Both the position numbers and the translations under genes were made by a program. From the NCBI RefSeq assembly GCF_029784155.1, contig NC_073691.1, positions 92,803,617-92,867,616 on the forward strand: a stretch of 64,000 nt of DNA. Direction: 5' to 3'. The notes under the pieces are model-generated. The model did not search any database. It saw only the letters and a program-made list of their open reading frames with translations, and was not told where the DNA came from. This document shows, piece by piece, positions 1 through 39,170 of the stretch (positions are counted from its first letter, which is position 1; each line of letters opens with the position of its first letter). The stretch comes from Uranotaenia lowii. Its lineage: Eukaryota > Arthropoda > Insecta > Diptera > Culicidae.

Positions 1-1216
1 AAATGTTTTGTCGATTTCATGGCAGTAATCGCACGTAATGGTAATAATTCTCTGTTGTAAACTTTGATACAAATCGTTTTTATAGCCCTTTAAAATTCTC
101 ACTGAGAGCAGCTGCCAAGAACGCCTTCAAGCGAACGTTTGCCACTTCGATCTTTTTTTGTTATTCCAAAAATCGTTTATTCATTAAATTAGTCTCCATA
201 AACATTTTTCTGTCGTAATTGATTAACATTGTTGGATGTCTATTTTTATTAATATTTCCTTGTAATCTACCATCATGTTCTGCATTTATTGTTATGCCCT
301 ATTGATCGATAATAGTACAATAAAATAATCGCCGAGATGGGCCAGTTTTGACATTTGAAAAATTCAAAACAGCAACCATAGGCCGTCCACGAATTACTAC
401 ATAACACGATTGCCTTTAAAAATATGTGTTTGAGTTTTCTTTGAATAAATTTTTTATTCAAAGCTACATTATGCTTTAGACTATGTCAGGTACCACTTTA
501 AGTGATATTTTATCATACTATTTGGTAAAAATGTATTTATTTTTATAAAAACATTTACGAGTCAAGTTTTTTTTAATCCTTTCAGGTGTTACGTCATGTA
601 TGAGCGACCCACTAAAATTGGTTTGTTTACAGCTTTTCTTGTTTTGTTTTTTTCATCCACGTCGTGATTTGTGCACTTCCAGAAGTTCGTTCAGCTCCTC
701 GATTTATCCGTGTTAGTACCGGACGAGAACGTGAATAATCATCGGTTACCTGGAGAAGTTACTACGAAGGCATCGTCGGATTGTACCGTGGTTTCGTTAT
801 GTCGGTCCCGTATATCATCAACGAAGCTTTCTTCGGTTGCTTCAATACCGCCACGGAGATGCTACCAGATTCGAAGGATAAGTTTTGTTTCCTGGCAAGC
901 ATCGACCACAAAAATTTTGACGTCAGCCTCCGGTATAAGCTCGTATCCATTTGGCCCCATTTGATGACACAGTATAGCAGTGCTCCAGCCACCGTTTCTT
1001 CAATACATTCCTTGCCCAACAATCGGCAATTGCAAGAAGAAAAAGTTGCATTTTTATCGGAGGTATACGTGTAGTACTCTGGTGCTTGTGTTTTAAGATG
1101 AAATCAAGGTTTAGTTCATAGTTTAGTTGTTAGATGATTGGTATGTTATTTTAAAGTTTTTACTTCAACAGGTCAGTGATGTATGTGTCAAAATAAATTT
1201 TGAAGATTTGGATTAG
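1..1216. other. Flank without a recognised gene
   Basis: AT-rich DNA downstream of the P-like gene. Two overlapping 97-residue plus-strand frames (671-964 and 781-1074) are open. The second contains a plausible-looking stretch ending in a tyrosine-valine before its stop, but I recognise no family and see no splice context that would make either a gene. I see no 31-bp P-type terminal inverted repeat here. A T-rich run at 1217-1240 reads AATAAA on the minus strand and could be the poly-A signal of the gene that ends at 1342. Confidence 0.4.
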
Positions 1217-1341
1217 ATTTTTTTTATTTTTAGATATTTTCTCTGTATGTATACTTAACATTAAAACTTTCTCTTATGAATGCGCCAGTTGAAAATATGT
1301 AGAAATCAGTACAAATAAATGTTCAGTTGTTTCTTAAGAAG

Positions 1342-4300
1342 TCATGTGAGGGTAAGATTCATTCTTTTGGCTTTCTGATTCCTTTTTATTTTGCGTTTCT
1401 CTTCATCGAACGTTTTTCTTGCTAAGCGGACTTCGCGTAAAAAGCCTTGAATAAGTGTGTTCAAGATTCTGTCAACCAATACCTTGAAGCACCCATTGCA
1501 AATTACATGTTCGTATTCCGTGTCGTCTAAATACTCTTTCAGGCGGGTTTTAACATTTCGTTTGTTTTGTTTTAAAAATCGGCGGAACTTTTGTTTAAAT
1601 ATAATAAAAATCTTAAAACCCATGTTGTACAGAAGCTGGTTTGGAATCGTTATTTTACGTCGAGACAAACTTTGTTTGATGAACGAAAAATCATAATCTT
1701 CATTCTTTGATATGGTACTGATGTTTGAGGCCGTAAGATTTCTACGACATGCAAGATGTTTCACTTTACGAAGGGCGCTTCCTAAGATGTAGACTAGCGC
1801 ATTCGTCTCTTTTTTGTAAATAATTACAGAGCTCGTTTCTCTGAGTGGTGTCTTCTTGTAATGAGTTATTTTTTCAGTTTGCCCGGCGTTCATGTTATCT
1901 ATGTCTTTATCGTTTAATAAAGGAACATTGTCGTCATCAATACAGTTTTTTCCAGTCGAATGTTTTTGAATAGCTTCAATCTGCGCGTATTTGAAAGCAG
2001 TTGAAAACTGCAGAGCATTCGGCGCATCATTAAATCCACATCTACGACGAACCTCGGCAAAGAAATTTTCCAGACAGTCTTGGCAAAGACGATTTGTGCA
2101 TAGGTAGCGACATTCGTATTTGATTTTTAACCTCTTCCACAACCATTTTAGGGCACAAATATTATGAACCAGCCCTTTGACATAATGAGGTATTCTTTGA
2201 GTCGCTTTAAGCGATTTAGACTCGATCAAAGACTAAAAAAAATCAGAATAAGTAAACGAAACGCTTTAAACTCGAACGTTATTACCTTTCTAATGTCAAA
2301 GCAATTTTTGTTTGTGAAGTACATTTTTTTGAGAATGGAAAGTGCATCATCTAAAAATTTCCAATGTGAACTACCATCGGTGATTGGTTGTCTTAGAGGC
2401 TACGACAATGTTGTAGGGTGTTTAATATTTATTAAATAAATTAAAGTTATTGTAATGAAATTTGCAAATAAATAGAAACAAATATAGGTTACCTTTCCAA
2501 TGCTATCGGAGAATCGTTCTCTGGAATTAAACGTATCAAAAATCCTGTCATGAAGTAAAATGAATTGGGCAGTGTCGAGTGCTGCAAGAGGTAGTTGATT
2601 GTTTTTAACATAATAATGGATTGCGGAAGCACATGTTTCGCTTAGTGTTCGAGCCGCTAGAGCCACGTTCATAGAAGCGAAAGGTGGAAGGTTAATATTT
2701 TTTTCCTGGAGTTTTGGAACTAATCTTATGGTCGATTTGACATCTACTTCGTAAAGTAGTTCAAGATGCTTATAGGAGGCTATCTTTCCATTGGAAACGA
2801 CATTATTTTTCCGAAAAGCATTGCGAGCACTTTTTATTAAATGTGGAGTATCATAAAAGACTGCAACCTTTTCTCCATCCACGTTAATCCATGGTTTATT
2901 CTTTGAAACACGAGCTTCATGAAGCATTTTGAGATTCGTACTTCCTTGGTCCATCGTGATAGCAACTGGTATTAATCCAATTCGTTGTATGGCACGAATA
3001 CATTTTTTTATTAGCGTAAATTGACATTCACTGCCCAAACTGTTATGAGCCAAAAAGAATGCAATAGGCTGAAAAGTATAGACACGTTAGTACATAACAT
3101 AACATAAGATCGAAGTATCAAAAGAGAAAAATATAAATCATTCATCAACAATTTAAATGAAATTTAAATCTAATAAAATCATAAAATGAATAAAAGAATC
3201 AACTTATCTAGTTTATCTTTAAAATCTGAAATGGTAAATTATAAAAACAGTTTTCACCTGTTTGTAATTTCTGTACAGCCCTGAAACCATAATAGTAATT
3301 GCTTCAGACGCCAATTTCATGTGGTTGTTGTTTTCGATTTTTTTCATCGTGCCTGTGTCCGGAAATCCGTAGAAAATATCTGCTTTGGCACTGTATGCAA
3401 TTTCCGATTTTATAGACATGCCATCACAGGTGAGAAGCACTATTCTATCTTGGTTATTTTGAAATTTTGAAACCTTTTGTTTCATCATATCAATGATCTG
3501 GTGATTGATACCCGGTTTTAGTCTAATGTTTTTGTAAAAGTTATAAATTGAATTCTTACAAGGCAGAGTGATAATTTTTGATTGCTGTATGTGGCGATAT
3601 GCACGCGGCCCACTTATATAGAGACCGGAGGCAAATTTCATCGTTTTTGCGTGATACCTTCGAGCATGTGGCTTTTTAGATGAATTAAGCAATGAGTCTA
3701 ATATAACTTGATTTTTTCGAACTTTGACTCCTAGAGCTTCATCATTAGTTTTGACTTTTTGAAGAATTTTAATCTCCTTCTTCAGCAAAGACACTTTTTG
3801 TTTCAACTTATTAACAGTGTTATTGCGCCTTTTAATTTTTTGATTTGAAACAAAAAGTTGCCGCTTGAGTCGGATGATATTCGCCTTTTGTAAGTTCTTC
3901 AAAATTATGCCAGATTTTGTATTCCGTATTCTATCTACACTATTTGATAAGATAGAATTCTTGGCATCTTCAAACATGATACGCTGACCTAGGAAACGAA
4001 AAAGGTTAAGGTAAGATTACTTCTAACAATTTTCTGAAATTTACAATTTTCAGATTAACGCACAATTTACATCTTCGAATGTGTCCAACAAAACAACTTT
4101 TTCCGATTCATAAAATGGATCCTCAGAAGCCAAGAGATTAAATGACGAGCTACATTTCTCGAGGCATTTCATATCTGTAGTGACGTCCAACGAATTTTGC
4201 TGCCCTATAGGAAACCATTATAGTTAGTTAAATTAATATGCACCTCGAAAACTTAAGTAGCTTACGCACTTCTGACATTTTGGGATGTGTCCAACAGCAC

Positions 4301-5469
4301 ATATTGTTCCGAATTATTATTCGGATCATCCGAAAATGAAAAATTAACTGGGGAGCTACATTCTTCGAAAAACTTCCAATCTGTATAGCTAGCATCTTCG
4401 TATGCATGGTATGCACTCGAAACTGCAGTTCCTATTTCTTCAATTTCCATAGCTACCAACCGCTCTTCTCGTGAAGGATTTGGGGAGATTGGCGAATCAT
4501 CCTGCTCTAAATATTCGTATTTGGTAAAATTGTCATCATCGCCCAAAGACGGGGGCACACATTTACAGGGCGCACAATTTACATCTTCGAATGTGTCCAA
4601 CAAAACAACATTTTCCGATTTATAAAATGGATCCTCAGAAGCCAAGGGATTAAATGACGAGCTACATTTCTCGAGGCATTTCATATCTGTAGTGACGTCC
4701 AACGAATTTTGCTGCCCTAGGAAACCATTATAGTTAGTTAAATTAATATGCACCTCGAAAACTTAAGTAGCTTACGCACTTTTGACATTTTGGGATGTTT
4801 CCAACAGCACATATTGTTCCGAATTATTATTCGGATCATCCGAAAATGAAAAATTAACTGGGGAGCTACATTCTTCGAGAAACTCCCAATCCGTATAGCT
4901 AGCATCTTCGTATGCACTCGAAACTGCAGTTCCCATTTCTTCAATTTCCATAGCTACCAACCGCTCTTCTCGTGAAGGATTTGGGGAGATTGACGAATCA
5001 TCCTGCTCTAAATATTCGTATTCGGTGCAATTGTCATCATCGCCCAAAGTCGTAAAGTTTTCCAGATTATCCGTCGGATTATGTATTGGAACAGCAGCTC
5101 TAACAAGACTGTTATTGAACAAATTAATTAACAAAATGTATGCGCCTTATTTTGAATTAGCACTTACCGCTTACCCATAAAGTGTGTATTCCGAAAACAG
5201 CTGTCTGAAAAATGATCCGAACAGATTTTCCTTCGTTTGAACGCTTTCGGACCGGAAGTTGAAAAGAGCTCTTTTTTTTCAGCTGAGCCGCAAGCTTCCA
5301 CCCACATTCTGCATCTGGCATTTTACAACAGACATATTAAGTAAAAAACAAATTCAACAACATAACTTATTTTCACTTACAGGTTTTCATCTTGTGGAAA
5401 CTGAAAAAAGGATTTTCCGGGAGTTTTTCCCTCCTCATTAGCACAAACCAATATTTCGCACCGCGGCAT
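1342..5469 (-). CDS. P-element-like THAP transposase, nine exons, intact frame
   Basis: Reading GT-AG introns on the minus strand gives exons 5381-5469, 5168-5314, 4780-5108, 4270-4716, 4064-4204, 3258-3988, 2493-3068, 2286-2399 and 1342-2232. All phases match, for a product of about 1,154 residues, longer than the roughly 750 residues of Drosophila P transposase. Exons 1-2 encode a THAP zinc finger: the start MPRCEILVC gives the first cysteines and KICSDHF the Cys-x2-His pair. Acidic repeats follow, then a Lys/Asn-rich likely coiled coil and the RNase H-like core. Candidate catalytic acidic residues are in LLTCDGMS, ITMDQGSTN and QDCLENFF, so a D-D-E set is kept. Such proteins bind DNA through THAP and cut and join transposon ends. 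No terminal inverted repeats were found, so it may be a living P-like element, an old one, or a domesticated THAP9-like gene. It lies on the same strand as the integrin exon. Confidence 0.8.
4064..5108 (-). repeat. Tandemly duplicated acidic exons of the P-like gene
   Basis: Two coding modules alternate A-B-A-B. Module A (4780-5108 and the lower part of 4270-4716) carries a run rich in Asp and Glu ending SEQYVLL. Module B (upper part of 4270-4716, and 4064-4204) carries MKCLEKCSS and ENVVLLDTFEDVN. The units are about 510 bp and nearly identical, including the small introns between A and B. The donor is GTGCGT after the second A and after the last B. In the middle copy the B donor reads GTGCGC and the frame stays open straight into the next A, so B and A are fused into one exon. 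Confidence 0.8.
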
Positions 5470-7119
5470 GTTGATTGTTTATGTTTTTTGTTTACACTTT
5501 ACACTGCAAATTTGTTTTGACAGTTTTCACTGCAGTCTTTGATGACATCTGGTGGACCAATCAAAAAACAAGACTTGATGCAAAATAGTCGTTGAAATTT
5601 TTACACAACATTCGGGGGCTGGCTTGTTTATCTGTTATCTGTGCTTTTACGAAACACATCGTGAAGAAAACCTGATTAATCCTTAATCCAATCAATTGAA
5701 ATGGTTTGATCATCAATTGATGTTTATTGGTCATTCAATCTTATCAAAACATTTCAATCCGTCATATATCCAATACTTATATCACTATCAGCGGTGACTT
5801 ATATCCTTATGAATGGTGTGCCATTCAGTTGTTGCCATTAGAAGGACATCGAAATCAGTGGCGTAGCCATTTAATCGGTTCCGTAAGCAGTAGCGTGGCT
5901 ATAAAACCACACAACCCGTATTGCCTGACAATGAAAATCGACCTATGAGGATTAGTTCCTGGAAAGAGGCCATCACAATAGGCAGTTCCTTTCCTACTCC
6001 AATCAACGTCAGTGAGCTGAAGCAAAAGCAATCATCAGCTTCAACGGAATGGGACCGGCTGGAGTTTGGTAAATATTTGCGATTCCCAGGATCTCCGCTT
6101 TCGTCCGTGTTTTCTTCATGGGTTTGCATTTTTCGCTGCGATTAGTGTGTGTGACTAAACCAAACACCAACGGCAACTCTTAACCTCACCACAACCCCTT
6201 ATTTCCTCAATTGTTTCGAGACTCGAGTGTGCAGAGTTCATCATTTGTGTGACATTAACAGCAATCCATGGAATTTGATACGCGCCACGCCAAACGGCAG
6301 CCTACTGTTTTGGACGCTTGTTAAAGCTCAAAAAGTCTCAATGAGTTGAGTAAACAAACTCGCGTTGTGCCCACCTTTGTTGATCGTTTTTTTGTGATTC
6401 TACAATAAAAGGGCTTCGCCTCTTCTATCGGATGGATCGGTTAGTGCATAAGTAAGCAAAACACTCCGCTATCAAGGCCGTTTTGGGGGATTTCATATCA
6501 TCAACACAAGGTGTGAGATTTGTGTTATTAAGTGGAGGGTTTGGCGGTGATAATCCGGTGGAACCTTCGCGGTTGCTAAACCTCGGAATAAGTGCCTGCG
6601 AGTCGATAATTCCCAAGCTACACATTGTCCCCTCATTTTCCCCCTTAAAGGTAGGTACCTTACATTTTCAATATCCCCGGCACGTCCTCGTCGAAAATAG
6701 ATGAGTTTGTTTTATGTATTGACATCCATTGTCTTCTCGGTCCACAAAATGCAAAAGTGACCTGGCTGTAGTGTTGTGAGGCTCTCTTTCAGCTTTCGTC
6801 TTTCCGTCTTCGATGGGAAAACTTTCCAAACACGTCCAGCCAATTGGCCGAAACGTGAGCATTTATTTGATATGCCTATAAAGGTCGCCCATAGATGGAA
6901 TAAAAAGGCAGTTAAATTAGACATCTACCTAGGTGCTTTGCAAATCGGACTGAGATTAACCGTTGGCCAATTTCATGGGAATAAGTTTTCCTCTCGGATT
7001 CGGATTGATTTGGCTATTTAAAACTATTCCGAAACCATTCTTGGAAGAAACGCTAGAATAAATATGAAGAGTTGTAAATAAGTTTATCTACAGCCAATTG
7101 GTCAAAAATGTGGAAAAAA
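5470..7119. other. Intergenic or intronic DNA, no gene seen
   Basis: Upstream of the P-like gene. It contains only short frames of 60-80 residues on both strands with no recognisable motifs. 5470-5650 should hold the promoter of the P-like gene but I see no clear TATA or initiator. Confidence 0.4.
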
Positions 7120-7341
7120 AATCTAATTTCAAATTCAGATTTCAGATTTTAGATTTCAATTTCAGATTCAGATTTCAGATTCAAAACTTTAGAAATAGAT
7201 TTCAGATTCAGAATTCAGATTCAGATTTCAAATTCAAATTTCAGATTCAGATTTCAGATTCAGGTTTCAGATTCAGATTTCAGATTCAGATTCAGATTCA
7301 GAAGATATCAGTTTCATATTTCAGATTCAGATTTTAGATTT
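7120..7341 (+). repeat. 13-bp satellite array, minor, TTTCAGATTCAGA type
   Basis: Degenerate tandem copies of a TTTCAGATTCAGA unit. This is the reverse complement of the unit in the much larger array at 9924-11050, so the two arrays face each other across about 2.6 kb. The 79-residue open frame over it is a repeat artefact. Confidence 0.85.
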
Positions 7342-7556
7342 GAGCTTTAAGATTCCAAGTTGTCTTTTTGACTTACTTGAATTATGAACAATTCAGTCAA
7401 ACTCTCCTCTCGCACTGATTCAAGGATTGCAGTTTTTTTTTCTAAAGTTGTTTTTTTAATCCGCCTAATTTACAATTTGGTGAGTAACTTAGGCTTTCTT
7501 CTGAACTCTACTTTAAATTTCAAGCTATTTTCTTCATTCGAGCAAATTATTCTTAT

Positions 7557-8022
7557 CTGTAACTCAGGCTGTTTCCTCTGAATTCACTTTTCGAGTTCAA
7601 GCTGCCTCTCGACTCGCATGTTGTTTTCTTCAATAACACAGGCTGTCCTCTCAACTCGCCTTTCGATTTCAAGCTGTCCTCTCTACTCGCTTGAATTCTT
7701 ATCTTTAGCTCAGGCTGTCCTCTCAATTCGCCTCTCGATTTCAAGCTGTCCTATCAACTCGCTTGTTTTTTCATCAATAACTCAGGCTGTCCTCTCAACT
7801 CGCCTTTCGATTTCAAACTGTCTTCTTGACACGCTTAATTTCTAATCAATTACTCAGGCTGTCCTCTCAACTCGCCTTCAAATTTTATGCTGTCCTCTCA
7901 ACTCGCATAATTGTTTCTAAAACGTTCAGGCTGTCCTCTCAACTAGCCTTCCAATATCAAGCTGTCCTCTCAACTCGCTTGAAATTGTGAACGTGATCAG
8001 GCTGTCCTTACGACTCACTTTA
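7557..8022 (+). repeat. CT-rich minisatellite
   Basis: Imperfect tandem copies built on CTCAGGCTGTCCTCTCAACT alternating with TTTCAAGCTGTCCTCTCAAC, with variable AT-rich spacers of 20-40 bp. At least ten GCTGTCCT cores are present. No coding potential. Confidence 0.85.
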
Positions 8023-9923
8023 TATTTCATTTTTATTCCTATTTCGGCATTATTTCATAAGCCGCTCATTTTCCAATGAAAATCCGGTTAGTTATCATCT
8101 TTTTTTTTCAAATATTTTATCCTTATAAAAGAGATGTATCCATTATATTACCTTAAAACCGCACCATTAATCATCTGTTTTCAATTTTTAAAGTGAATTT
8201 CTTACTTAATATATAAGGCTGGAACAAATATCAATTTCTCCTTTAGTCACCCCCCTTCCCCCCCTTCGAAATTTTCAAAATCCCGAAGGGGGGAATTAAT
8301 AAAGTTTTTTTTTTCAATCAATAAAATCTTAGTTCAATTAAGTATTTTAAGTAAATTTCAAATAAAAATTCAAATATTCGAAAGATTAAAAGACCAAAAA
8401 TCAAATTTTGGAAGATAGAAGTTAGCTCACATTTTGCCTTCTTGATTTTATTGAATTTTTCGATAAAAAAATATTTGATTTATAGGTTTTATGCAATTAT
8501 TTAGTATGCAATTTGGTTGCATACAAGCTTTCATGCAATTTATTCCATTTTATTTTCGCATTAATTGAATAGAACACTTCAATTAGTGGCAAACCTTCTA
8601 ATGGTTATGCAAATTATCTGTGATAGCATCAGCTCTTCCTTGTATGATAAATCATGCAATATTATTTTTGACACAAAGTTCGTCTGAGGTCAGGGTAGCA
8701 AATAGTTGAACACTGACAGGTTTTTTTTTGTTTCTGTAGGTACGTTAAAATGTGAACGGCCCCCGTTCATGTCGTTAACTAGAAAACATATCCTAACGTG
8801 TTGCTCGCTCAAGTGAAGGCGAAAGATGCCAAAAATGGTCGTCGAAATACATTTTAAGTGGCTTAGGCGCGCGATAGCATTAATTGTTCGGTTAATGTCT
8901 GAAGTGCGTTGACGGATTTCGACACAGGTTGTTGGCAGGTTTTTTGTCCGTGAACCTAAGTCCATATAGTTTTTTCATTTAACATAAGCAAATAAGAATT
9001 TAATTCGTCTTTGGAATCCCTACAAACTGTATTGTATGTCTTCTTTGAGCAAAATACTATGTTAGCCTTTTTATTTCCCTCAAAATGGAATGGGCTTAAT
9101 TTGCATTAATTCACTATGTATAGGTAGTGTCAACATAATTGATTGCTGACTCCCTCAGACTCGCCACTTTCAAGCCGAAGTGTACAAACTCTAGGGCTAT
9201 AAATAACGGATTAATTCCAATTACAACCCGTTGATTACTCGTCAATATCACCTCCTCCTTCCTAGATGGCCATAAACAAATCGACAGAACCGATATTTTA
9301 AATGGAAAATAGGTCCAGTGTAAACTACTCGGAATGTGCGGAGGATATTTATTTTCGTCCCCTCGGCCAAGCTCGTGTAGTCTTTTAAAGTGCTGCTCTC
9401 GGGGGAGAGCTTGTAAATATTTATTGCTGACATGCATGCAAGCAACAACGACCTTCGAAAAACGAAATAAGACAGAGAGCGAGAAGCAAAAAAAAAACAC
9501 TTGTTACTAAATCCCTCCTTTTGTGATGTTAAGTTGCTTTCTTTTGGCATTTTTTCCTTTTCTCACCGTTTTTTGTCCCAAAGCTTTCTTGCATGCTGTC
9601 AAGGCAAAACGATGCTAAGCCGTAGGACTCTGCTCAGGTGAAAAAGAGCAATCCATGTGCATTGGTACCTGTTTTTGTTTCCCTATTTGGTCTTGAATGT
9701 GGATAGCAAGTGGGCTCCTGCCTGACAGTGACAGTTCGCATGCAAATGTGCTATATTTTGAAGAAAGTTTTGCTCTCGAGCAAAGTGTGCTGTGTGCCTT
9801 TTGAGCAATCTATTTGCACAAATGAAGCAAACCTCAGCAAATCTTTTATAGGTATAGTAGGCGTGTTTCAAATTAATAATTATTTACAAAGAAATATTAC
9901 ATACAGACCTTGAAAAAGTTAAA
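8023..9923. other. AT-rich stretch, no gene seen
   Basis: Short frames on the minus strand (8690-8965, 9114-9500) resemble no family I know and lack splice or codon support. A small hairpin at about 8260-8292 pairs CCCCCCTTCG with CGAAGGGGGG around a short A/T loop. Confidence 0.4.
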
Positions 9924-13830: not shown

Positions 13831-13835
13831 CTGTG

Positions 13836-13874
13836 CACTATGGGGCAGCTCCATACAATGAGGCGGCAAAAAGT
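13836..13874 (+). promoter_or_regulatory. 23-RSS-like left end
   Basis: Heptamer CACTATG at 13836-13842, then exactly 23 bases, then GCAAAAAGT at 13866-13874. The last matches the RAG nonamer ACAAAAACC at six of nine positions, including the central A tract. The motifs are read directly; recognition by a Transib transposase is inferred. Confidence 0.55.
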
Positions 13875-14691
13875 ATGATTAGGTGTTTTGGACTATTTTG
13901 TTATTTTTGAAAATTTTGTATGAAAATTACTATTTTAACTAACTTATAATAAATTCTTACAAGAATTTTGCATAAATAGCTTTTAAAGTACGATGCTTGG
14001 TGTTATTTTTGACCCTACTTTTTATTTCTTTTGAAAACCAGGTTTTGGATTAATTGATCATTAAATGATAAATAACATCAAGATATTTCATGAAACTCAA
14101 GAGAAAAATGTGTGAAATGATTGATCAATCATGAGAAACATTTTTTTTGACAAACCAACATCAACTTTGTTGAGTTTTTACTCATTAATGGGTAAAAATT
14201 ACCCATTTGCATGATATTTTCAGCTTTATTTGACTATAACTCAAAAAACGGTGCTTTAAGGTGCCTGGAATCTCTTTCATTGTATTTTTAGGACTTGAAA
14301 ATAGATCTTGATAGTGAAAAGAGTATGGGGAAATGCGGGGATTTTTTTTGGCAAGCCTTTAAAGTTTTTGATTTTTGAAAAAATAATTATTTACTCATTT
14401 TTATCAGAGATCAATTTAGAGTGTAAAAATTTTGAATGGTTCAAATGATAGCTTTTAATATAAGCTTTCATATGGTGTACTTTGAATTTAAGAAAAAAAT
14501 GTTTTCCATAGAAATATATGTGATTTAAATTTTTTTCTTCAACATATAAATTTTTCAATTTTTCAAAGTCTGATGTCTGTGGTGCGTTCTGTATTCAAGA
14601 TAATGAGTTGAAAAACTGGGAATATCTTAGTTAAATATTAAGTTATAAACTAGCAAAAATAAAAACGCGACCCGATAAAGTTCAGTTTTTG

Positions 14692-14719
14692 ACTTTTTGC
14701 CGCCTCAAACCCCATAGTG
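14692..14719 (-). promoter_or_regulatory. 12-RSS-like right end
   Basis: Read inward on the minus strand: heptamer CACTATG (14713-14719), exactly 12 bases (14701-14712), then the same GCAAAAAGT nonamer-like block (14692-14700). Together with the left end this gives a 12/23 pair. Confidence 0.55.
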
Positions 14720-14724
14720 CTGTG

Positions 14725-24500: not shown

Positions 24501-24659
24501 CATCGCGAGTTTCTAGTTTCCGGCGACATACGAAATATCGTGGAAAAGTGTAAAAGACTTTAAACTTTTCGAGCAAATTAGCATATAGTCGCGTCGGAAG
24601 GTGGCAGCCATTTTGTTTTGTTCGAGAAAAGTGAAAAGTTGAAAAAACATCCTCATAAA

Positions 24660-27600
24660 ATGGATGCGAATCAATTCAAATATTTCATGGATCAACAAGC
24701 CCAAATGTTCAGTCAACTACTACAAGGAATCAACAAACGCTCTGGAGCGCAGTCAAATGCAGTTCCGGTTTCTCAGTCACAACCTTGTGCAGCGAATGTG
24801 TCAGTTCCTCAACCGTCCCCTCTGTCGCTGGTAGGCGACATGGAGGTTAACTTCGAATTTTTCGAAAGGAGCTGGAATGATTACGCCAAAGCGATTGGAA
24901 TGGACCGTTGGCCCGAAGCTGATAACCCGCAGAAGGTTAGTTTCTTACTTTCCATTGTAGGAGAGCCTGCTCGTAAGAAATTTTTCAACTTCGAACTAAC
25001 CGCTGAACAAAGAGCGAATCCGGAAGTCGCGCTGCTAGCAATCAAGGCCAAAGTGGTATCCAAGCGAAACATTCTTCTGGATAGGTTGGACTTCTTCAAT
25101 TCGGAACAGCAGTGTGACGAGACCATTGACGACTTCACTACGCGTCTGAAGATTCTGGCCAAAATGGCTCATCTGGGTGTTTTGGAAGAAGAATTGGTGA
25201 CTTTCAAAATCGTTACAGCCAATAAGTGGTCCCATCTTCGAACGAAAATGATTATTATCCCGGACATCACCAGAGAGAAAGCCGTCGACATATGCAGAGC
25301 CGAAGAAATAACCACTCAACGCGCTAAGGACTTGCACGTTCCCTCAACACCAGCAGAAGTGAATAAGGTAGAAAAACCCCTAAACAAGAAACATAATTTG
25401 TGCAAATTCTGTGGAGACCGTCATGAGTTTGCCAAAGGAGTTTGTCCAGCCCTGGGAAAGCGATGTAAGCGATGCAATGGCAAGAACCACTACAAAAAGG
25501 TATGTAAATCTAAACATAGCTCAAAACGACGTTCGAAAAAAATAAAGGAAATACGGGAAGAAGACAGTGAAACAGACAACCAATCATCATCCTCGAATGA
25601 TGCTTCATCCGAACAAAGTGACTGCGAATACGAGATAGGAAAGATATTCGACTATTCCGACAAGGGTGGTAGTGTTCTTGCTGAACTCGATCTAAAATTC
25701 TCTGATTCCTGGTCCTCAGTTGTCTGCGAGATTGATACTGGGGCGAATACCAGTTTGATTGGTTACAAATGGCTATTGAAGTTGAGCAATGAGGTAGTTC
25801 CGTCCCTGTCACCTTCCACATACCGTCTCCAAAGCTTTGGTGGGAATCCGATAAAAGTCTTGGGTCAAGTTAAAATTCCCTGCAGAAGATCGGGTAGACG
25901 TTATCTTCTTGTACTCCAAGTTGTTGATGTTAATCATCGTCCACTGCTCTCAGCGAAAGCTTCTCGTATTCTGGGATTAATAAAATTTTGTAATTCCGTA
26001 AATGTATCACAATCCACTTCCACTGATACAAAGGAAAAACTTCTCCAAGTATACCGAATTAAGGCTGAAAAAATAATCCAGGGACACGCATCGCTATTCT
26101 CGGGCTATGGGCAGTTTCCAGGGACAGTTACTCTTGAAGTAGATAATACCATTCCACCTTCAATTCAACCACCGAGAAGAATCCCCATCGCTATACGTCC
26201 AAAATTGGAAAAGGAATTGAATGCCCTTGAGAAAGATAAGATCATCGTAAAGGAACCTCAGCATACAGAATGGGTTAGCAATATCGTCATCGTACAACGT
26301 GGAGGAGAACAAAAGGGTATTCGAATTTGTTTGGATCCAATTCACCTCAACAAATCTTTGAAACGTCCACACCTCCAATTCAATACTTTGGACGAAATTC
26401 TTCCGGACTTAGGCAAAGCAAAGGTGTTTTCGACCATGGACACTAAAAAGGGATTTTGGCACGTCGTACTGGACGAACCTAGTAGCAAATTAACTACTTT
26501 TTGGACTCCTTTCGGAAGGTATCGTTGGTTGAGAATGCCTTTCGGAATCGCTCCAGCACCAGAAATCTTTAGAATGAAACTGCAAGAAATAATACAAGGT
26601 TTAAAGGGTGTTGAAAGTCTCGCTGATGATATCCTGGTATACGGAGTAGGAGACAGTTTCGAAGAAGCTTTGATAAACCACAACATTTCGCTTAAAAATC
26701 TTCTGTGTTGTTTAGACAAAAATTGTGTGCGCCTAAATAAAGACAAGCTTAAACTTTGCCAGACGTCTGTTCAATTTTTCGGGCATGTGCTCACAGACTG
26801 TGGCCTAGAACCTGATCAATCTAAAATTTCAACCATTCGTAACTTCCCAACACCAACTAACCACAAAGAAGTCCATAGGTTTATTGGAATGGTTAATTAC
26901 CTCAGTCGTTATATTCGAAATCTCAGCGTAAATTTGACACACCTGAGGAAATTGATTTTGCAAGACCAACAATGGAATTGGACGTCGGTAGAAAATGAGG
27001 AATTTCTACGAATCAAGTCAATGGTATCAGATATCAAAACTCTTTGTTACTACGATGTCAACTTACCATTAATTATAGAGTGCGACGCCAGTTGTTTTGG
27101 ACTAGGAGTAGCTTTATTTCAAGGCAATGGTGTAATAGGTTACGCATCTCGAACTCTTACACCTACGGAGCGCAATTATGCACAAATAGAAAAGGAGTTA
27201 CTAGCGATTGTGTTTGCTTGTACCAGATTCGATCAGCTTGTCGTGGGGAACCCGAAAACCATAGTCAAAACTGATCACAAACCACTCCTAAATGTTTTCT
27301 GAAAACCTCTGCTAACAGCTCCTAAAAGGCTCCAACATATGTTGCTGAACCTCCAGCGGTACAATATAGTATTGGAATATGTTACAGGAAAGGAAAATGT
27401 AGTTGCTGATGCACTATCTCGAGCCCCATTCGATGACAAAAATAGTGCACATTCCTACCAGAAGCAGAATATATACAAAATTTTCCAAGAGTTGGAAAAA
27501 ATAGATCCGAAGATCTTCCTAAGTATTTCGGATGCAAGATTAAGTGAAATTATACAAGAAACAGAAAAAGATAAAACACTGCAACTAATCATAAACTACA

Positions 27601-28830
27601 TTCAATATGGTTGGCCTTCCTCCGCTGACCAAGTGCCAGACGACGTAAAAATTTATTATAATCATCGTGCTGAATATTCCACGCAAGATGGACTCATCTT
27701 TCGTAATGATCGGATACTTATCCCTTATACACTCCGTCGAAGCTTGATTGATAAGTGTCATACCAGCCATAACGGAATCGAAGCAACTCTTCAGCTTGCA
27801 AGGGCAAATTTGTTTTGGCCTGGCATGAGCTCACAAATAAAAAATGCTGTCCAAGGTTGTCCGGTGTGTGCCAAGTTCGCGTCGTCACAGCCTAATCCAC
27901 CGATGCTGAGCCACAGCATTCCAATTTATCCATTTCAGCTAATATCGATGGATGTTTTCTTTTTGGAATATCGTAATACCAAATGCAAATGGTTGGTCAC
28001 CGTAGACCATTATTCGGATTTTTTCGAATTGGATATTCTTCCGAATTTAACACCAGAATCAGTGATAGCTGCTTGCAAAGAAAATTTTGCTCGTCATGGG
28101 ACACCACAAAGGGTGATAACAGACAACGGAACACATTTCGTTAGCCGCAAAATGGTCGAATTTGCAACAAACTGGGATTTCGAACACGTTACCTCCTCTC
28201 CTCATCATCAACAAGCCAACGGAAAATCGGAAGCAGCAGTCAAGATTGCAAAGCGATTGATCAGGAAGGCTGATGAAACGGGCGCCGATTATTGGTTTGC
28301 TCTTCTTCACTGGCGCAATATTCCAAACAAAATTGGATCCAGTCCAGCAGCTCGATTGTTTTCCAGATCAACACGGTGTTCGGTTCCGACTGCAGCTGCC
28401 AATTTAATCCCAAAAGTCGTGGAAAATGTTCCGGAATCTATCGAGAAAAATAGAAAGCTATTCAAAAAGCAATATGATAAACAGAGCCGAGACTTACCTA
28501 TTCTTCAGAGTGGGTCCCCAGTGTTTGTTCAGTTGAATCCGGATGCCTCGAAGCTATGGTCACCTGGTACAGTATCTTCCAAACTAAACGACCGTTCCTA
28601 CCTAGTTAACGTGGGAGGAAAGGATTACCGCCGTAGTTTGGTCAACTTGAAACCGCGTAAGGAACCCGAATCGTCGCCTTGCCATCCAGCACAACCAAAA
28701 CAAACTTTGGATGAAAAACAAACAACGACTACACCGCCTTCGCCGCCTGCTGCTATCAGATGTCAACCACCCAACGACGGTGTAATCGAATCACCGCCTA
28801 CTACACTGAACCCAAATTCACACTTAAAAA
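24660..28830 (+). pseudogene. Gypsy-1 gag-pol polyprotein, interrupted
   Basis: One frame from ATG at 24660 encodes gag with zinc knuckles (CKFCGDRHEFAKGVC near residue 247, then CKRCNGKNHYKKVC), an aspartic protease (DTGANTS near 358), reverse transcriptase (LADDILVYG near 653, with L in place of the usual Y), RNase H (IIECDAS near 803) and integrase. The integrase has an HHCC finger around 27760-27870 and the catalytic motifs SMDVFF, ITDNGTHF and GKSEAA. A single in-frame TGA at 27300-27302 interrupts RNase H; the frame reopens at once. The reading ends in the nested TIR element, and the authentic C-terminus resumes at 41832-41969. Apart from these two defects the gene is well preserved, consistent with a young insertion. 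Confidence 0.85.
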
Positions 28831-29542
28831 ACACTAGAAGAATCACTTAAAAGTGAAAACGCAGTGAATTTCTTCATTTCAAGTGGCTCATGTACATTTC
28901 ACTTGCCTCTCACTTAAGTTTTAAGTGACCGAATCAATATACACTAGCTCATCACTTGAGTTTTAAGTGACCGGCATTGAATGTCTTCGATGCTCACTTG
29001 AAATCCACTTGACCGGTCACTTAAGCCAATATTCACTTGCCCATCACTTAAAATTCAAGTGATTTTTTGCATAGCGAATGTCAACAATGTCAGTATTGAT
29101 TGTTTCATTGTTGTTTGGAAAAGAAACAACAGAGGTTTGTTTGAGTTGGTAGATGCAGAATTAAAGTAATTTATATGTTATAAAACAATGATATTTTCCA
29201 TAGGTCGACCGACAGAAACATCGTGTGAACCGGTTAACACGTCGCAGAGACCCTTTTTAAAGCAATCAGGTTTCGGATACGTTTTCCGATGATGATTTAT
29301 TTTGGAAATATTCAAATGCAATTAAAGTAAGTATCATGCAAAACAAAAAATACTAGTTAAATTTATTTTATTTTTTAATTATTATTTCAGAAAAGATCAA
29401 CCCGAATGTCTCGTCAAAGTGAGTAAGTCAATGATTTTTCGAAGCCGAAAAATCTTTTTGAAGAAGAAAAAGTGACGTTTTTTACGTTGTATTTTTAATA
29501 AATAATTGTTTTGTAGAAACAAAGTTGATTAATGTTTGATAT

Positions 29543-34071: not shown

Positions 34072-37000
34072 TTAGGAGTATGTGTGCAGTTTTTTAATTT
34101 GATCAGCAAAGTAGACACCAATTCGTTTCCCTTGCTGATCTTCAAGCTCATACGTGTGAGACCCTAAGACCTTCCTAACTACGCATGGTTCATACTTTGG
34201 CCCAAGTTTTTTGCAAAACCCCTTACCCTTGTCTGAAAGGTCGAAAGCCTTTTTTAGAACTTTTTCTCCGGGAATGTAACGAGGGCAACTTTGATTGGAA
34301 CGTAAATTATAAGTCTTTTCGTGTCGTTTGTAAGCAGCTGCCAAGTTCGACCTAACTTCTTCAAAAAGTTTTTGTCGTTCCTCTACTATAGTTCCCTGAT
34401 CTTTTTCGACTGCCTGGTGTTTGTCTCGTATTTTTGCGTACTCTCTTCCGTCAGATATCTGATTACGGCCGAAAACAACAAAATACGGACTATGTTTGGT
34501 GGAGTTATGAATGGCTGTGCGGATTGCGTTGGCAATTGACTGTATGTCGTCTGCCCAGTGTTTATGTTCCTTTTTTAGCGTTGCTCGAATCGCAGTCGTT
34601 ATCACCCGGTTAACACGTTCCGTGTTGTTAACTTGCGGATGATAAGCTGGTGTTAACCAGTGGTTAACATGGTACGTCTTCAGAAGGTTGGTGAACTTGG
34701 TTGATGTGAATTGAGTACCATTGTCTGTCAAAACAATCTCCGGTACTCCAAACAAGCGAAATATCATGTTTTCGACAAATTCGGTTAGTGGTTCTGCTTT
34801 GGCTTCCCTGAAGGGTTGCACCAACACGAATTTGGAGAACACATCAGTTGCTACTAGCAGACAGGTGGCGCGGTTTTTACCGGAAGCTGGAAGAGGTCCG
34901 ACGAAGTCTAGAGTGACGAATTGCCAAGGGTATTCAACAGGTTTTTGGGAACCCATAGGAGGTGTTGTATTGATATTCACGGCTTTGCTGGTTTGGCAAG
35001 GGAGGCATTGTCTACAAAATTTCCTTATTTCCGCGTTCATCTTTGGCCAATGGAATCGCTCTTTGATGGCCAACAACGTCTTTTCGTAACCGAAATGGGC
35101 TTTGTTGTGTTCCTGTTGGATAATGGAATTTCTTTCGGCTTGTGGTGGATATCGTTTCCAGGTGAAACGTGGATCGTCCTGATGGTTTGCAGACTTGATG
35201 TATTTCCATACTTCCCCATCAATTACGCGAAAGTCCTTGAACTTTTCCGGGTTTGATGAGATGTCCTTGATGAGTTCCTCATATTCTGGATCGAGTGTTG
35301 TTACGGATATGGCTTCGATGGATCGTGACAAGCAATCAGCTGTGATGTTGTTTTTGCCTTTGCGATATTCCAATTCAATATCGTAAGACTGGATACGCAA
35401 AGCCCACCTGAGGAGTTTGGAATTCCCTGATTCGGCTCCGATTTTGAACAGCCAGAGAAGACTTCGCGCATCAGTCACGACCTTGAATCGAGTGCCCTCT
35501 ACATAATGGCGGAAATTGTCGATCGCTAGCAGGACACCTAAACATTCCTTTTCTACAGCTGCATATTTTTTTTGAGTCGCGCTTAGCTTTTTGCTGAAGT
35601 AACCTATTATCCGGGTCTCGCCATCTTGGACCTGGACTAACGCAGCACCTACAGCGTTCTCGGAGGCATCTGATTCGATGATGAACTGTTTCGTGAAGTC
35701 TGGGTTCGCTAGAATTGGGGCGGAAGTCAGCAAAGACTTCAGCTCTTGGAACGCTGTTTCTGCCTCTGCGGTCCACTTGATTTTCTTCTCCTTCTTCAAC
35801 AGATCGGTTATCGGCGCGGTTATTCGACTGTAGTTTGGAATAAACCGTTGATAGAACCCGGCCAGTCCCATCAAGCGTCGTATATCCTTCAGGGATTTCG
35901 GTCTAGCGTAATTTAATATCGGCTCAATCCTTGATTGATCGATACTCACGCCCCGGTCTGTTAACAAGTACCCTAGATACATCACTTGTTTCCGACAGAA
36001 CCGTGATTTTTCGAGAGATATTGTCAATCCAGCGTTTCTCAATCTTTTCGCGACTTCTCTTAATAGTCTCAGATGTTCACTCAGATCCTTCGTGGCTACG
36101 ACTATGTCGTCTAAGTAGACGAAGACCTGGGGCTGCAAATCAAACCCTAGAGCTGCTCCCATGAGACGACACATTGTAAACGGCGCGTTAGTGACCCCAA
36201 AGGGACAAACTTTAAACCGGAAAAGTCCTTTAGAGGTCCGGAAGGCGGTGTAGTTCCTGCTTTCTTTTTTCAGCGGAATTTGGAAGTACGCGTCCTTGAG
36301 GTCGATAATAGAGAAGTATTTGGCTGACTCAAGACGATGGAATATGTTTTGCATGTTCTGCATCGGATAGGAATCCTTCACCGTCATCGCGTTTATTCGC
36401 CTGGAGTCGAGACAAACTCGGATCTTGCCATTCGACTTCCGGACAGGAACAAGTGGATTCGTCCATTCGCTATAACATTCCTCTATAGCTCCCAGCTCCT
36501 TAAACCTCTCGATTTCTGCGTCGATCTCTTTTTGTATGTACGGTGAACATTTGTAGACAGGTTGATTTCGTGGTTTGGCGTCATCTTTGAGCACAATTTC
36601 GTGCTCAATCAAGTGTGTTCGGCCGAGTTTTCCGGGCGCTGTGAAAGCAAACTCCTTCACTGCTTCGATTAATTCTGCTCTTTCCTGCTCGAGTAATTCG
36701 TGTTCAGTTTCTATATTTTCCGGAATAGGTTCTTCTGGTATATCGAAAGTTGGAATATCGAGTGTGCTGTCGGAGTCATTTTTGGTGAGGTTAGGGAATT
36801 CATCTGATGGCTCGATGTTGAAACAAATTTGAGAGTTTGGTACCGTGTCTGAGGTTTCAAGCTTCTCGAGTCCATTTCCGACATCGATCATCGGATGGAT
36901 TCCAAAACTATCCCAAAAATCAGCTCCTAGAATCAGCTTTCTTGAGATTTGGGGAACGATGATTGTAGGTACAACTCGAGTTATGCCTTTGTACTGAAAA

Positions 37001-37353
37001 GGTAAATTTAAGTACCCTAAACATCGATATTCAGTTCCGTCCGCTGTGCTTACCCTTACTGCTGCAGGTTGGATTTCCAAGCCATACTTCTCGGCAAATT
37101 CGGCTGAATTTGTTACGCTTATCCCAGCCCCTGAATCAAGAAGAGCGTTAATCTCAGTGTCGAAAACCTGAACACGGATATGTGGACATTTATTCGTATT
37201 TATTCTAATATGATGAATTTTTAATAATGGGTCGAATTCTGGAGTTTTGGGAACACAATGTTGCTCAGGGGTGTTTGAACTCCCAACTTCAAACCCCTGT
37301 TTTAGTTTCCCTGTTGTTGGCGACTTGTTCTTGCGTAATTTTTCGCAGAACAA
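34072..37353 (-). CDS. Gypsy-2 pol polyprotein
   Basis: 1,093 residues, entered by -1 frameshift from gag rather than from the first Met. In order: aspartic protease (LLDSGAGISVTNS), reverse transcriptase (FSIIDLKDAYFQIPL, CPFGVTNAPFTM, catalytic VYLDDIVVA), RNase H (ESDASENAVGAAL, then KYAAVEKECLGVL) and integrase. The integrase has a zinc finger ending CRQCLPCQ and the catalytic DFVGPLP, LTDNGTQF and NNTERVN. It makes the enzymes for maturation, cDNA synthesis and insertion of Gypsy-2. There are no internal stops or missing catalytic residues, so it may be functional. Confidence 0.95.
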   Translation of the reverse strand: MFCEKLRKNKSPTTGKLKQGFEVGSSNTPEQHCVPKTPEFDPLLKIHHIRINTNKCPHIRVQVFDTEINALLDSGAGISVTNSAEFAEKYGLEIQPAAVRVSTADGTEYRCLGYLNLPFQYKGITRVVPTIIVPQISRKLILGADFWDSFGIHPMIDVGNGLEKLETSDTVPNSQICFNIEPSDEFPNLTKNDSDSTLDIPTFDIPEEPIPENIETEHELLEQERAELIEAVKEFAFTAPGKLGRTHLIEHEIVLKDDAKPRNQPVYKCSPYIQKEIDAEIERFKELGAIEECYSEWTNPLVPVRKSNGKIRVCLDSRRINAMTVKDSYPMQNMQNIFHRLESAKYFSIIDLKDAYFQIPLKKESRNYTAFRTSKGLFRFKVCPFGVTNAPFTMCRLMGAALGFDLQPQVFVYLDDIVVATKDLSEHLRLLREVAKRLRNAGLTISLEKSRFCRKQVMYLGYLLTDRGVSIDQSRIEPILNYARPKSLKDIRRLMGLAGFYQRFIPNYSRITAPITDLLKKEKKIKWTAEAETAFQELKSLLTSAPILANPDFTKQFIIESDASENAVGAALVQVQDGETRIIGYFSKKLSATQKKYAAVEKECLGVLLAIDNFRHYVEGTRFKVVTDARSLLWLFKIGAESGNSKLLRWALRIQSYDIELEYRKGKNNITADCLSRSIEAISVTTLDPEYEELIKDISSNPEKFKDFRVIDGEVWKYIKSANHQDDPRFTWKRYPPQAERNSIIQQEHNKAHFGYEKTLLAIKERFHWPKMNAEIRKFCRQCLPCQTSKAVNINTTPPMGSQKPVEYPWQFVTLDFVGPLPASGKNRATCLLVATDVFSKFVLVQPFREAKAEPLTEFVENMIFRLFGVPEIVLTDNGTQFTSTKFTNLLKTYHVNHWLTPAYHPQVNNTERVNRVITTAIRATLKKEHKHWADDIQSIANAIRTAIHNSTKHSPYFVVFGRNQISDGREYAKIRDKHQAVEKDQGTIVEERQKLFEEVRSNLAAAYKRHEKTYNLRSNQSCPRYIPGEKVLKKAFDLSDKGKGFCKKLGPKYEPCVVRKVLGSHTYELEDQQGKRIGVYFADQIKKLHTYS
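37266..37311 (-). promoter_or_regulatory. -1 programmed frameshift signal, gag-pol
   Basis: On the minus strand the slippery heptamer GGGAAAC (37305-37311) is in the correct X_XXY_YYZ phase of gag, and the gag stop TAA follows at once. After five bases comes a stem-loop: CAGGGGTTTGAA pairs with TTCAAA-CA-CCCCTG, twelve base pairs with a 2-base bulge and an 8-base loop. Slipping back one base at the heptamer puts the ribosome in the pol frame. GGGAAAC is a known retroviral -1 site. Confidence 0.85.
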
Positions 37354-39170
37354 CTCTCACATGTTCGAATGGTGCGACCAAGTTTACCGCAACCGAAACA
37401 GAATATTACTCTTGGCCTCGAACAATCTCTCCATCCGTGTCCTTCCTGTTGACAGTTCCAACAAGCGGTTTTTGTTGGAAGGTGATTGTTGGAAAATTGC
37501 TGTTGCTGTTGGAAAACGGGTGGTTGGTTAGCTTGTTGTTGCTGCTGGAAAACGGGTGGTTGGTTAGCTTGTTGTTGCTGCTGGAAAACGGGTGGGTGGT
37601 TAGCTTGTTGTTGTTGTCCATAAGTTTTCTGCGGTGGTGTCTGCTGATGATACAGATTCGTCCCCTTCGACATTTGGTGGTATGAACGGCTGTTCATCAC
37701 ATTCACGTCTGCTGCCTTCTCGTTTTCCTCTGGATCTGAACCCACATCAATGTTATTGATTCCGCGCCGAGGTTGAGGGTCCCAAGAAGCTTGTAGGGAT
37801 AGGTCTGTTGCATCGATCTTATAGTTCAGCTTTATCAAATGGTCCAAATTTTCAACATCTACTACAGAAATTCTGTCATGATAGTGATGTCGCATGTTGT
37901 CCCAAATGACTTCGAATTTCCTTCTTTTAGACATTCTCCTCGACAACATACGATTCAGCTTTTCGATCTCGGTAACGTACGCGATAAAAGATTCGCCCCT
38001 TTGCTGTTTTCGATTGTGAATCTTTAGACGAATCCCTTGGTCCTTGTTAGGGTTACCAAACCTGGTTCTCATCAGCTTCTCGAAATTGTCCCATGAGTGG
38101 AAATTGTCTATGTACGTAAAAAACCAGTCGGAGGCCGATCCCTCTAGAAGCAAATGGATGTCTCGTAACAACCTAGTTTTGGGAACCCCTTCAATTTCGG
38201 ATAGTTTGTCAACTTTGTAAAGAAAGTCCTCAACACTAAGTGAGCGAGAATCCCCCGAAAATTTGATCTTCCATTTTTCTACTCGATGCGAATCATCCCC
38301 CCTACCTCCATGCCGAGTTCGTGGCCTATAGTCTCTATGGCTTTCCGATTCCGAATCGCTCTGGCCATATCCTCTGTCTTTGTCCCTGGGTCTGTTATCC
38401 CTCTTGGCATCGTAGAATGAATCGTCTTCTTCACTTTCGTCTTCGTCGTCCTCTAGATGTCCTTTCCGAACCGTTGGGCTAGTGTTAAATTGGTGTTGTG
38501 TCCATTTGCTAGAGCTTGGAGTTTCGTGGGAGTTGGTACGGTTTCCTTGTGAGTCTGACATCAATGTCCACATGGCGGTTATCATTTCCTCCATATGACT
38601 GAGACGTTGGTCCACAGGATCCTTTACCTCGGTCCTTGCAGGAGTTGCAGTCGGTTTTGGAATCGTCCCTAGACTATTCCTTGGGTTTCCGGTTTGTTCA
38701 TGGTTACTGGTTCCCGGCGCTGTAGTTATATTTTGAGTAAGAAGCTCACGGATCTGCTCTTTCATGGGCGTTGTTGGAAGGACCACTTTATTTGCGCTCA
38801 TCACATTTTCGATCCGCCGAACTAAATCCCTACGCATTTTCTTCTGGTCTTCAGAAGCTGCCTGTAGTCGTTTAGCTCGATACCAGTAATGCAGCAACCT
38901 GGACTCATTTTTTGCATCCATCTTCTTCCGATGGATAGATTTCTCGATGCTGGACAACTGTTCCCCCAGGAGGCAAAAATAATCAGACACTGATTCACTT
39001 GACTGATAGTTTTGTTTTTTAGACAAGTCATCGCGAAAAATCATTCGTAAAAGCCTTTGCTTTCCTGCTAAATCGAGACTTTTGGTTACATCCCCAAATC
39101 TACCGCGTATTTGTAACTCGTAGTTAACCTCTTCATTGTTTAAATGTTCCGCACACGGAAACCGATCCAT
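37302..39170 (-). CDS. Gypsy-2 gag polyprotein
   Basis: 622 residues. The N-terminal half is charged and partly serine-rich; a capsid-like region follows, with SDWFFTYIDNFHSW and RGESFIAYVTEIEKLNRM typical of Gypsy gag. A glutamine-rich segment carries three near-identical copies of QQQANQPPVFQ (about 37490-37615), then a zinc knuckle CWNCQQEGHGWRDC and a second one in which the His is replaced (CFGCGKLGRTIRTC). It would form the particle and bind RNA. It overlaps pol by 52 bases in a different frame. Confidence 0.9.
   Translation of the reverse strand: MDRFPCAEHLNNEEVNYELQIRGRFGDVTKSLDLAGKQRLLRMIFRDDLSKKQNYQSSESVSDYFCLLGEQLSSIEKSIHRKKMDAKNESRLLHYWYRAKRLQAASEDQKKMRRDLVRRIENVMSANKVVLPTTPMKEQIRELLTQNITTAPGTSNHEQTGNPRNSLGTIPKPTATPARTEVKDPVDQRLSHMEEMITAMWTLMSDSQGNRTNSHETPSSSKWTQHQFNTSPTVRKGHLEDDEDESEEDDSFYDAKRDNRPRDKDRGYGQSDSESESHRDYRPRTRHGGRGDDSHRVEKWKIKFSGDSRSLSVEDFLYKVDKLSEIEGVPKTRLLRDIHLLLEGSASDWFFTYIDNFHSWDNFEKLMRTRFGNPNKDQGIRLKIHNRKQQRGESFIAYVTEIEKLNRMLSRRMSKRRKFEVIWDNMRHHYHDRISVVDVENLDHLIKLNYKIDATDLSLQASWDPQPRRGINNIDVGSDPEENEKAADVNVMNSRSYHQMSKGTNLYHQQTPPQKTYGQQQQANHPPVFQQQQQANQPPVFQQQQQANQPPVFQQQQQFSNNHLPTKTACWNCQQEGHGWRDCSRPRVIFCFGCGKLGRTIRTCESCSAKNYARTSRQQQGN

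What the first reader, a model, noticed from the sequence alone, without database searches (positions are those of the whole stretch)
13836..14719. Transposon whose two ends form a 12/23 pair like RAG recombination signals
Left end: CACTATG, exactly 23 bases, GCAAAAAGT. Right end: CACTATG, exactly 12 bases, GCAAAAAGT. The flanking duplication is 5 bp (CTGTG). Transib transposons are relatives of RAG1 with CACWATG-type ends and 5-bp duplications. As far as I know, a 12/23 difference within one Transib-like element is not a standard feature, so this could be an independent or ancestral form of the rule. The spacing is counted in the sequence; function is inference.
Basis: partly seen in the sequence, partly recalled or inferred. 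Interest (0 to 1): 0.9.

Follow-up and report, generated by a model that had tools for sequence, protein, structure and literature searches.

The report
Transib transposon with 12/23 ends
This is a short, gene-less jumping DNA of the Transib family (relatives of the enzyme that cuts antibody genes) whose two ends carry the same signal at two different spacings, 23 and 12 bases; the asymmetry is shared by the copies examined and by related gene-bearing elements in the same genome, but this kind of asymmetric Transib was already described in other insects.

Summary
The 884-bp element (13836-14719) is a non-autonomous Transib. Of 40 scored copies (1068 candidates), 40 have the 23-bp spacer and 34 the 12-bp one; one has 11, five have a changed or damaged end. 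An exact 5-bp duplication flanks 36 of 40.

Transib-coding relatives in the same genome have homologous ends: L066 (Hztransib match E 1.8e-60), L068 and the more distant L114/L111 read 12/22. L096 is symmetric 22/22, yet its 5' end holds the A-rich block that sits at spacer 12 here. The asymmetry looks like a shift of one end's block by about one helical turn. Of 24 end pairs tabulated, 20 are symmetric (19 exactly).

A 12/23 Transib is not new: a review (PMC8355894, passages) lists Drosophila Transib5 and Anopheles gambiae Transib2, N1, N2 and N3. Whether the transposase needs a 12/23 pair is untested here. The direct autonomous partner with CACTATGGGG ends was not found.

The parts
13831..13835 (.). 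left target-site duplication CTGTG
   Evidence: exact 5-bp duplication in 36 of 40 copies
13836..14719 (.). whole non-autonomous Transib element, 884 bp; no ORF of 150 aa or more overlaps it
13836..13842 (+). long-end heptamer CACTATG (no substitution in 37 full-length copies)
13843..13865 (+). long-end spacer, 23 bp
   Evidence: 23 in 40 of 40 copies
13866..13874 (+). long-end nonamer-like GCAAAAAGT, within the shared block 13859-13874
13875..14683 (.). A+T-rich interior without a recognised gene; about 3.2% substitutions between the ends against 1.5% and 0.6% in the two ends
14684..14692 (-). second A-rich 9-mer TCAAAAACT at spacer 20 of the short end (7 of 9 to the RSS nonamer)
14692..14700 (-). 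short-end nonamer-like GCAAAAAGT, within the shared block 14692-14707
14701..14712 (-). short-end spacer, 12 bp
   Evidence: 12 in 34 of 40 copies, 11 in one
14713..14719 (-). short-end heptamer CACTATG (one substitution in 37 full-length copies, L005)
14720..14724 (.). right target-site duplication CTGTG

Best explanation
The element is a high-copy non-autonomous Transib (MITE-like), moved in trans by a Transib transposase of, or close to, the L066/L068/L114 lineage, a RAG1-type DDE cut-and-paste enzyme. Each end is a bipartite site: a CAC heptamer where cleavage and joining occur, and an A-rich block read by another surface of the protein. At one end the block lies 12 bp from the heptamer, at the other 22-23 bp, so the second contact is one helical turn further away. 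Shown: anatomy, spacing shared by the copies examined, 5-bp duplications, homology of both ends to Transib-coding elements with 12/22 ends, and a symmetric 22/22 relative with the same block. Inferred: which protein moves it, that the block is a binding site, and that the short end arose by loss of about one turn.
For: Copies. Ends more conserved than the interior (5' end 1.5%, 3' end 0.6%, interior 3.2% substitutions over 37 full-length copies); in the first 39 bp of the long end the substitutions all lie inside the spacer, chiefly at positions 14 and 24. Coding relatives: L066 (TSD TGTGG) and L068 (TSD CGTCG) have the shared block at spacers 12 and 22; L066 pieces match Hztransib (PDB 6pqn) at E 1.8e-60 and 3.2e-19, and L068 is 94-96% identical to the L066 piece. 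The short ends align without gaps (21 of 26 in the block). L114/L111, a diverged relative (63% and 47% identity in two pieces), reads 12/22. L096 is 22/22 with TSD CGCTG, and its 5' block matches the MITE short-end block at 20 of 26; apart from the element itself no place on either strand of the window exceeds 17 of 26.
Against: No coding element with CACTATGGGG ends was found, and the pattern search that would look for it directly did not complete. Relatives L066, L068 and L114/L111 have CACAGTG heptamers and a 22, not 23, long spacer; L096 has CACAGAG and CACACAG. L114/L111 lacks a matching 5-bp duplication (GCGAC against GACGT), so its ends may not be an original pair. A better RSS-like 9-mer lies at spacer 20 of the short end. 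The scored copies are the nearest 40 of 1068 candidates, which favours intact ends. Terminal indels are not clearly depleted: 2 of 65 events fall in the terminal 67 bp of 884, about 5 expected.
Confidence: 0.85

Rival explanations
1. The spacer difference is functional: the transposase works best on one 12-type and one 22/23-type end, a 12/23 rule in a RAG2-less transposon.
For: The asymmetry is kept in the MITE copies examined and in L066, L068 and L114/L111. The difference is 10-11 bp, about one helical turn. ProtoRAG prefers its asymmetric 27/31 pair (PMC8289069, passages). Recombinant Hztransib together with mouse RAG2 is reported to recombine mouse 12/23 RSSs (PMC8355894, passages), which shows that a Transib enzyme can use such a pair, though with RAG2.
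Against: 20 of the 24 end pairs tabulated in this genome are symmetric. Mouse RAG1 without RAG2 shows no preference for 12/23 over 12/12 (stated in PMC8355894, passages), and PMC7204232 (passages) expects invertebrate RAGL enzymes to be rather insensitive to asymmetry. Each lineage may simply have inherited its ends. I ran no assay and saw none on such ends.
Confidence: 0.35
2. The asymmetry is tolerated but not required: a one-turn deletion at the 5' end of an ancestor was fixed because the protein reaches the block at either distance, and was then copied by descent.
For: L096 (22/22) has the same 5' block. One-turn changes keep the helical face. Symmetric families are abundant.
Against: Retention of both 12 and 22/23 in diverged lineages is what one would also see under selection; this evidence cannot separate the two.
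Confidence: 0.5
3. The element is a CACTA (En/Spm) transposon, since its ends begin CACTA.
For: First five bases CACTA.
Against: 5-bp duplications in 36 of 40 copies, whereas CACTA elements make 3-bp ones (recalled). Coding relatives have CACAGTG ends and a Transib transposase.
Confidence: 0.02
4. The 11-bp difference is a private indel of this copy.
For: None found.
Against: 40 of 40 scored copies have the 23-bp spacer and 34 of 40 the 12-bp one.
Confidence: 0.01

Closest known systems
Asymmetric 12/23 Transib elements: Transib5 (Drosophila) and Transib2, N1, N2, N3 (Anopheles gambiae), as listed in the PMC8355894 Figure 2 legend (passages), after Kapitonov and Jurka 2005 (not held, not read)
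   Same: 12 and 23 (+/-1) spacers between a CAC heptamer and an A-rich nonamer-like block at the two ends of one element; N1-N3 are, by their names, non-autonomous (recalled convention)
   Different: I could not compare sequences: the figure and the 2005 paper are not held. Heptamer here is CACTATG; relatives here mostly CACAGTG.
Hztransib (Helicoverpa zea), PDB 6pqn series
   Same: The transposase pieces of L066 match it along 217 and 131 residues
   Different: PMC8289069 (passages) describes Hztransib TIRs as symmetric with little or no nonamer similarity. L066 and L068 have, upstream of the part that aligns with the solved chain, a stretch with a GRPKK motif.
Vertebrate 12/23 recombination signals with RAG1-RAG2
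   Same: Bipartite signal, 12 and 23 spacers, 5-bp GC-rich target sites (PMC11844651, passages)
   Different: No RAG2 partner was looked for; nonamer 6 of 9; no evidence for a pairing rule
ProtoRAG of amphioxus
   Same: Asymmetric ends, 5-bp duplications (PMC8289069, passages)
   Different: 27/31 spacers and a RAG2-like gene

Membership tests
Transib superfamily | 5-bp, GC-biased target-site duplications | tested here: met
   exact in 36 of 40 copies, mostly C....G
Transib superfamily | termini beginning CAC, heptamer-like | tested here: met
   CACTATG at both ends; one copy (L005) reads CACTGTG at one end
Transib superfamily | RAG1-type DDE transposase encoded by the element or by a partner with the same ends | tested here: inconclusive
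   The element has no ORF of 150 aa or more. Relatives L066 and L068 with homologous but not identical ends carry Transib genes, broken in these copies. Partner with identical ends not found.
Transib superfamily | Pfam RAG1 family PF12940 | tested here: not met
   0 matches in the genome, 12 candidates scored. The 14 control genomes did not ring either, and the same genome holds clear Hztransib relatives, so this model is not a valid test for Transib.
12/23 asymmetric Transib subgroup | one spacer of 12 and one of 23 (+/-1) to an A-rich nonamer-like block | tested here: met
   23 in 40 of 40, 12 in 34 of 40 copies; register caveat at spacer 20
CACTA (En/Spm) | 3-bp target duplication (recalled) | tested here: not met
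   5 bp
RAGL/ProtoRAG | adjacent RAG2-like gene | not tested
   no search for RAG2-like genes was run
Works like V(D)J 12/23 rule | transposase prefers unlike ends | not testable with these tools
   needs an assay

The most novel reading that the evidence does not exclude
In this genome a Transib lineage without RAG2 moved from symmetric 22/22 ends to 12/22-23 ends by shifting one end's A-rich block one helical turn, and its transposase now depends on unlike ends, so a 12/23-type rule arose inside a transposon by a single small deletion.
Probability: 0.25. Interest if true: 0.85.

Novelty: new member of a known kind. Interest (0 to 1): 0.5.

Why it matters
The origin of the 12/23 rule is an open question. 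It could have come with RAG2 in vertebrates, or it could have been inherited from transposon ends. This genome holds symmetric 22/22, 12/22 and 12/23 Transib ends with a recognisably homologous block, plus a MITE with many similar copies. That gives natural substrates and candidate enzyme families to test directly whether a RAG2-less transposase cares about spacer asymmetry.

Tried and rejected
Private indel: rejected. CACTA: rejected by 5-bp duplications. Pfam RAG1 as a probe: no hit, uninformative. Viral contigs: a 51-aa Hztransib piece gave 23 pattern matches but no confirmed relative, and the exact long end gave 0. Transib motif in the window or in loci L001-L040: only an 8-residue chance match in L022. 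A first script for ends in L041-L060 used a poor motif pattern and led nowhere.

Idea that asymmetry goes with an extra NBD-like GRPK part of the transposase: L066 and L068 have it, but so does the symmetric L065/L073 family, so the correlation fails. The search was a simple GRP[RK] pattern on degraded copies.

End pairs not resolved: L041, L043, L048/L097, L061/L074, L063, L069, L071; L054 was unresolved as first held and resolved later as L096. L095 shows only the 22-end. L101-L105, L107 and L110 were scanned by one pattern only, without an end. L106, L108, L112 and L113 gave no clear end and L109 one possible single end. L056 was left out of the end table because its 3' end is disrupted. 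L046 and L049 are near-identical including flanks and count as one insertion. Family-A copies L044, L045, L050 and L052 were not tabulated.

Full report
Observation. The window holds, at 13836-14719, an 884-bp element flanked by CTGTG. Its ends read CACTATG-23-GCAAAAAGT and CACTATG-12-GCAAAAAGT. The two ends share a 16-nt exact block that includes the nonamer-like stretch, at offsets 16 and 5 after the heptamer, so the 11-bp difference is independent of how the nonamer is cut.

Copies. The own genome (1.08 Gb, 2009 contigs, three large ones of 216, 437 and 370 Mb; mosquito-like by my inference, no name given) gave 1068 first-look candidates, of which 40 were scored. Of these 40, 37 span the whole element. 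The long spacer is 23 in 40 of 40. The short one is 12 in 34 of 40 and 11 in one; it is not readable by the rule in five, two of which (L015, L039) have substitutions in the nonamer. By eye on the printed lines, L027 has lost about 10 bp of the short end and L031 has gained about 6 bp in it. An exact 5-bp duplication is present in 36 of 40, with C first in 25 of 36 and G last in 31 of 36. Over 37 full-length copies the mean divergence from their majority sequence is 3.1% (1.4-6.2%); the ends vary less (1.5% and 0.6%) than the interior (3.2%). This set is biased towards intact copies close to the window's. Terminal indels (2 of 65 events) are not clearly depleted.

Register. Against the RSS nonamer, the long end has its best match at spacer 23 (6 of 9). 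The short end has 6 of 9 at spacer 12 but 7 of 9 at spacer 20, where TCAAAAACT follows; that second A-run is conserved too. The case for 12 is therefore the shared block, not the vertebrate consensus.

Coding relatives. PF12940 found nothing. From surroundings of about 3 to 10 kb for a part of these I read the ends. L066 (TSD TGTGG) and L068 (TSD CGTCG) carry broken Transib genes. L066 pieces match Hztransib at E 1.8e-60 and 3.2e-19. Both elements have ends CACAGTG-12-GACAAAAGT and CACAGTG-22-GACAAAAGT. Their 12-ends align without gaps to the MITE short end, and their 22-ends share CATACAA and an alignable A-rich block with the MITE long end. The 12-end lies upstream of the transposase gene in these relatives. 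A search with the L066 piece (150 matches) gave a more distant relative on C1 (63% and 47% identity in two pieces). Its ends read 12 and 22, but without a matching 5-bp duplication. L095, a third L066-type copy, shows only its 22-end.

Symmetric relatives. Of the 24 end pairs tabulated, 20 are symmetric: 19 with offset difference 0 and L070 with 1 bp. Twelve of them are one family (L072 and eleven others, two of which, L046 and L049, are one duplicated insertion); its nonamer-like block reads at spacer 11 at both ends in 10 of the 12, the other two having substitutions. The rest are L062, L064, L067, L070, L073, L098, L096 and a second element in the window (43529-45141). The four asymmetric ones are the MITE, L066, L068 and L114/L111. 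These 24 are not a random sample: the regions came from the top of a motif list, and several loci gave no end pair. L096 matters most. It is 22/22 with TSD CGCTG, heptamers CACAGAG and CACACAG, and its 5' end holds GCCAAAAGTCAAAATTTAAACTTC, which matches the MITE short-end block at 20 of 26 positions; apart from the element itself no place on either strand of the window passes 17 of 26. So the same block sits at 22 in one element and at 12 in the others. The simplest reading is loss of about one helical turn at the 5' end. The direction is inferred; no tree was built.

Prior knowledge. PMC8355894 (passages read) states that 12/23 asymmetries occur in Transib5 of Drosophila and in Transib2, N1, N2 and N3 of Anopheles gambiae, with spacers 12 or 23 +/-1, and cites Kapitonov and Jurka 2005, which is not held here. 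The same passages say that recombinant Hztransib with mouse RAG2 recombines mouse 12/23 RSSs, and that mouse RAG1 alone has no preference for 12/23 over 12/12. PMC8289069 (passages) says that most Transib families have symmetric ends, and reports that ProtoRAG prefers its asymmetric 27/31 pair. PMC7204232 (passages) expects invertebrate RAGL to be rather insensitive to asymmetry. In the listings of six paper searches and the passages of the seven papers I opened I saw no test of a Transib transposase on its own 12/23 ends; most subscription papers are not in that library. The finding is therefore a new member of a known kind.

Mechanism. Most likely a Transib transposase of the L066 lineage, or a partner not found, cuts at the heptamers and joins with a 5-bp stagger, using the A-rich block as a second contact at two distances one turn apart. 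Shown: anatomy, copies, duplications, homologous coding elements. Inferred: the mobilising protein, the contact, the one-turn deletion. Unknown: whether unlike ends are required. I give tolerance 0.5 and requirement 0.35.

An attempt to link asymmetry to an NBD-like GRPK part failed, because the symmetric L065/L073 family has one too.

Noticed in passing
window 43529-45141: A second Transib-like element, 1613 bp, TSD CGTCG, symmetric ends CACAGTGGGCCAGGAACC..., identical for the first 49 bp of both ends. Its heptamer CACAGTG equals the vertebrate consensus heptamer (given in PMC8289069).
   Followed up: partly
L096 (C2:234986400-234995400), element 363-5514 in gene orientation: Symmetric 22/22 Transib whose 5' block is homologous to the 12-end block of the window's element.
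   Followed up: yes
L073 (C1:76190100-76200099), element 3331-8227: Transib with symmetric long ends and, upstream of the transposase core, a GRPK-containing stretch that resembles the RAG1 nonamer-binding region by eye (resemblance recalled).
   Followed up: partly
L027 and L031: Natural MITE copies with a shortened (about 10 bp) and a lengthened (about 6 bp) short end, possible natural spacer variants (read by eye).
   Followed up: no
L109 (C1191), near 3096, minus strand: A possible single Transib end, CACAGTGGTCCAAAAGGGTCAAAAGT, downstream of a Transib coding match.
   Followed up: no
window 1342-3977 (-): Three ORF pieces of a P-element/THAP9-like transposase (TNP-like RNase H and GTP-binding insertion domains).
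   Followed up: no
window 24618-28850 (+), 34072-39170 (-), 55236-56780 (-): Retrotransposon genes: two with reverse transcriptase, RNase H and integrase domains (the second also with gag), one with reverse transcriptase only.
   Followed up: no
own genome: Transib is abundant and diverse here: 150 scored of 258 candidate C-terminal motifs in several families, many of them in broken genes, against the remark in PMC4411706 (passages) that autonomous Transibs are typically in one or a few copies.
   Followed up: partly
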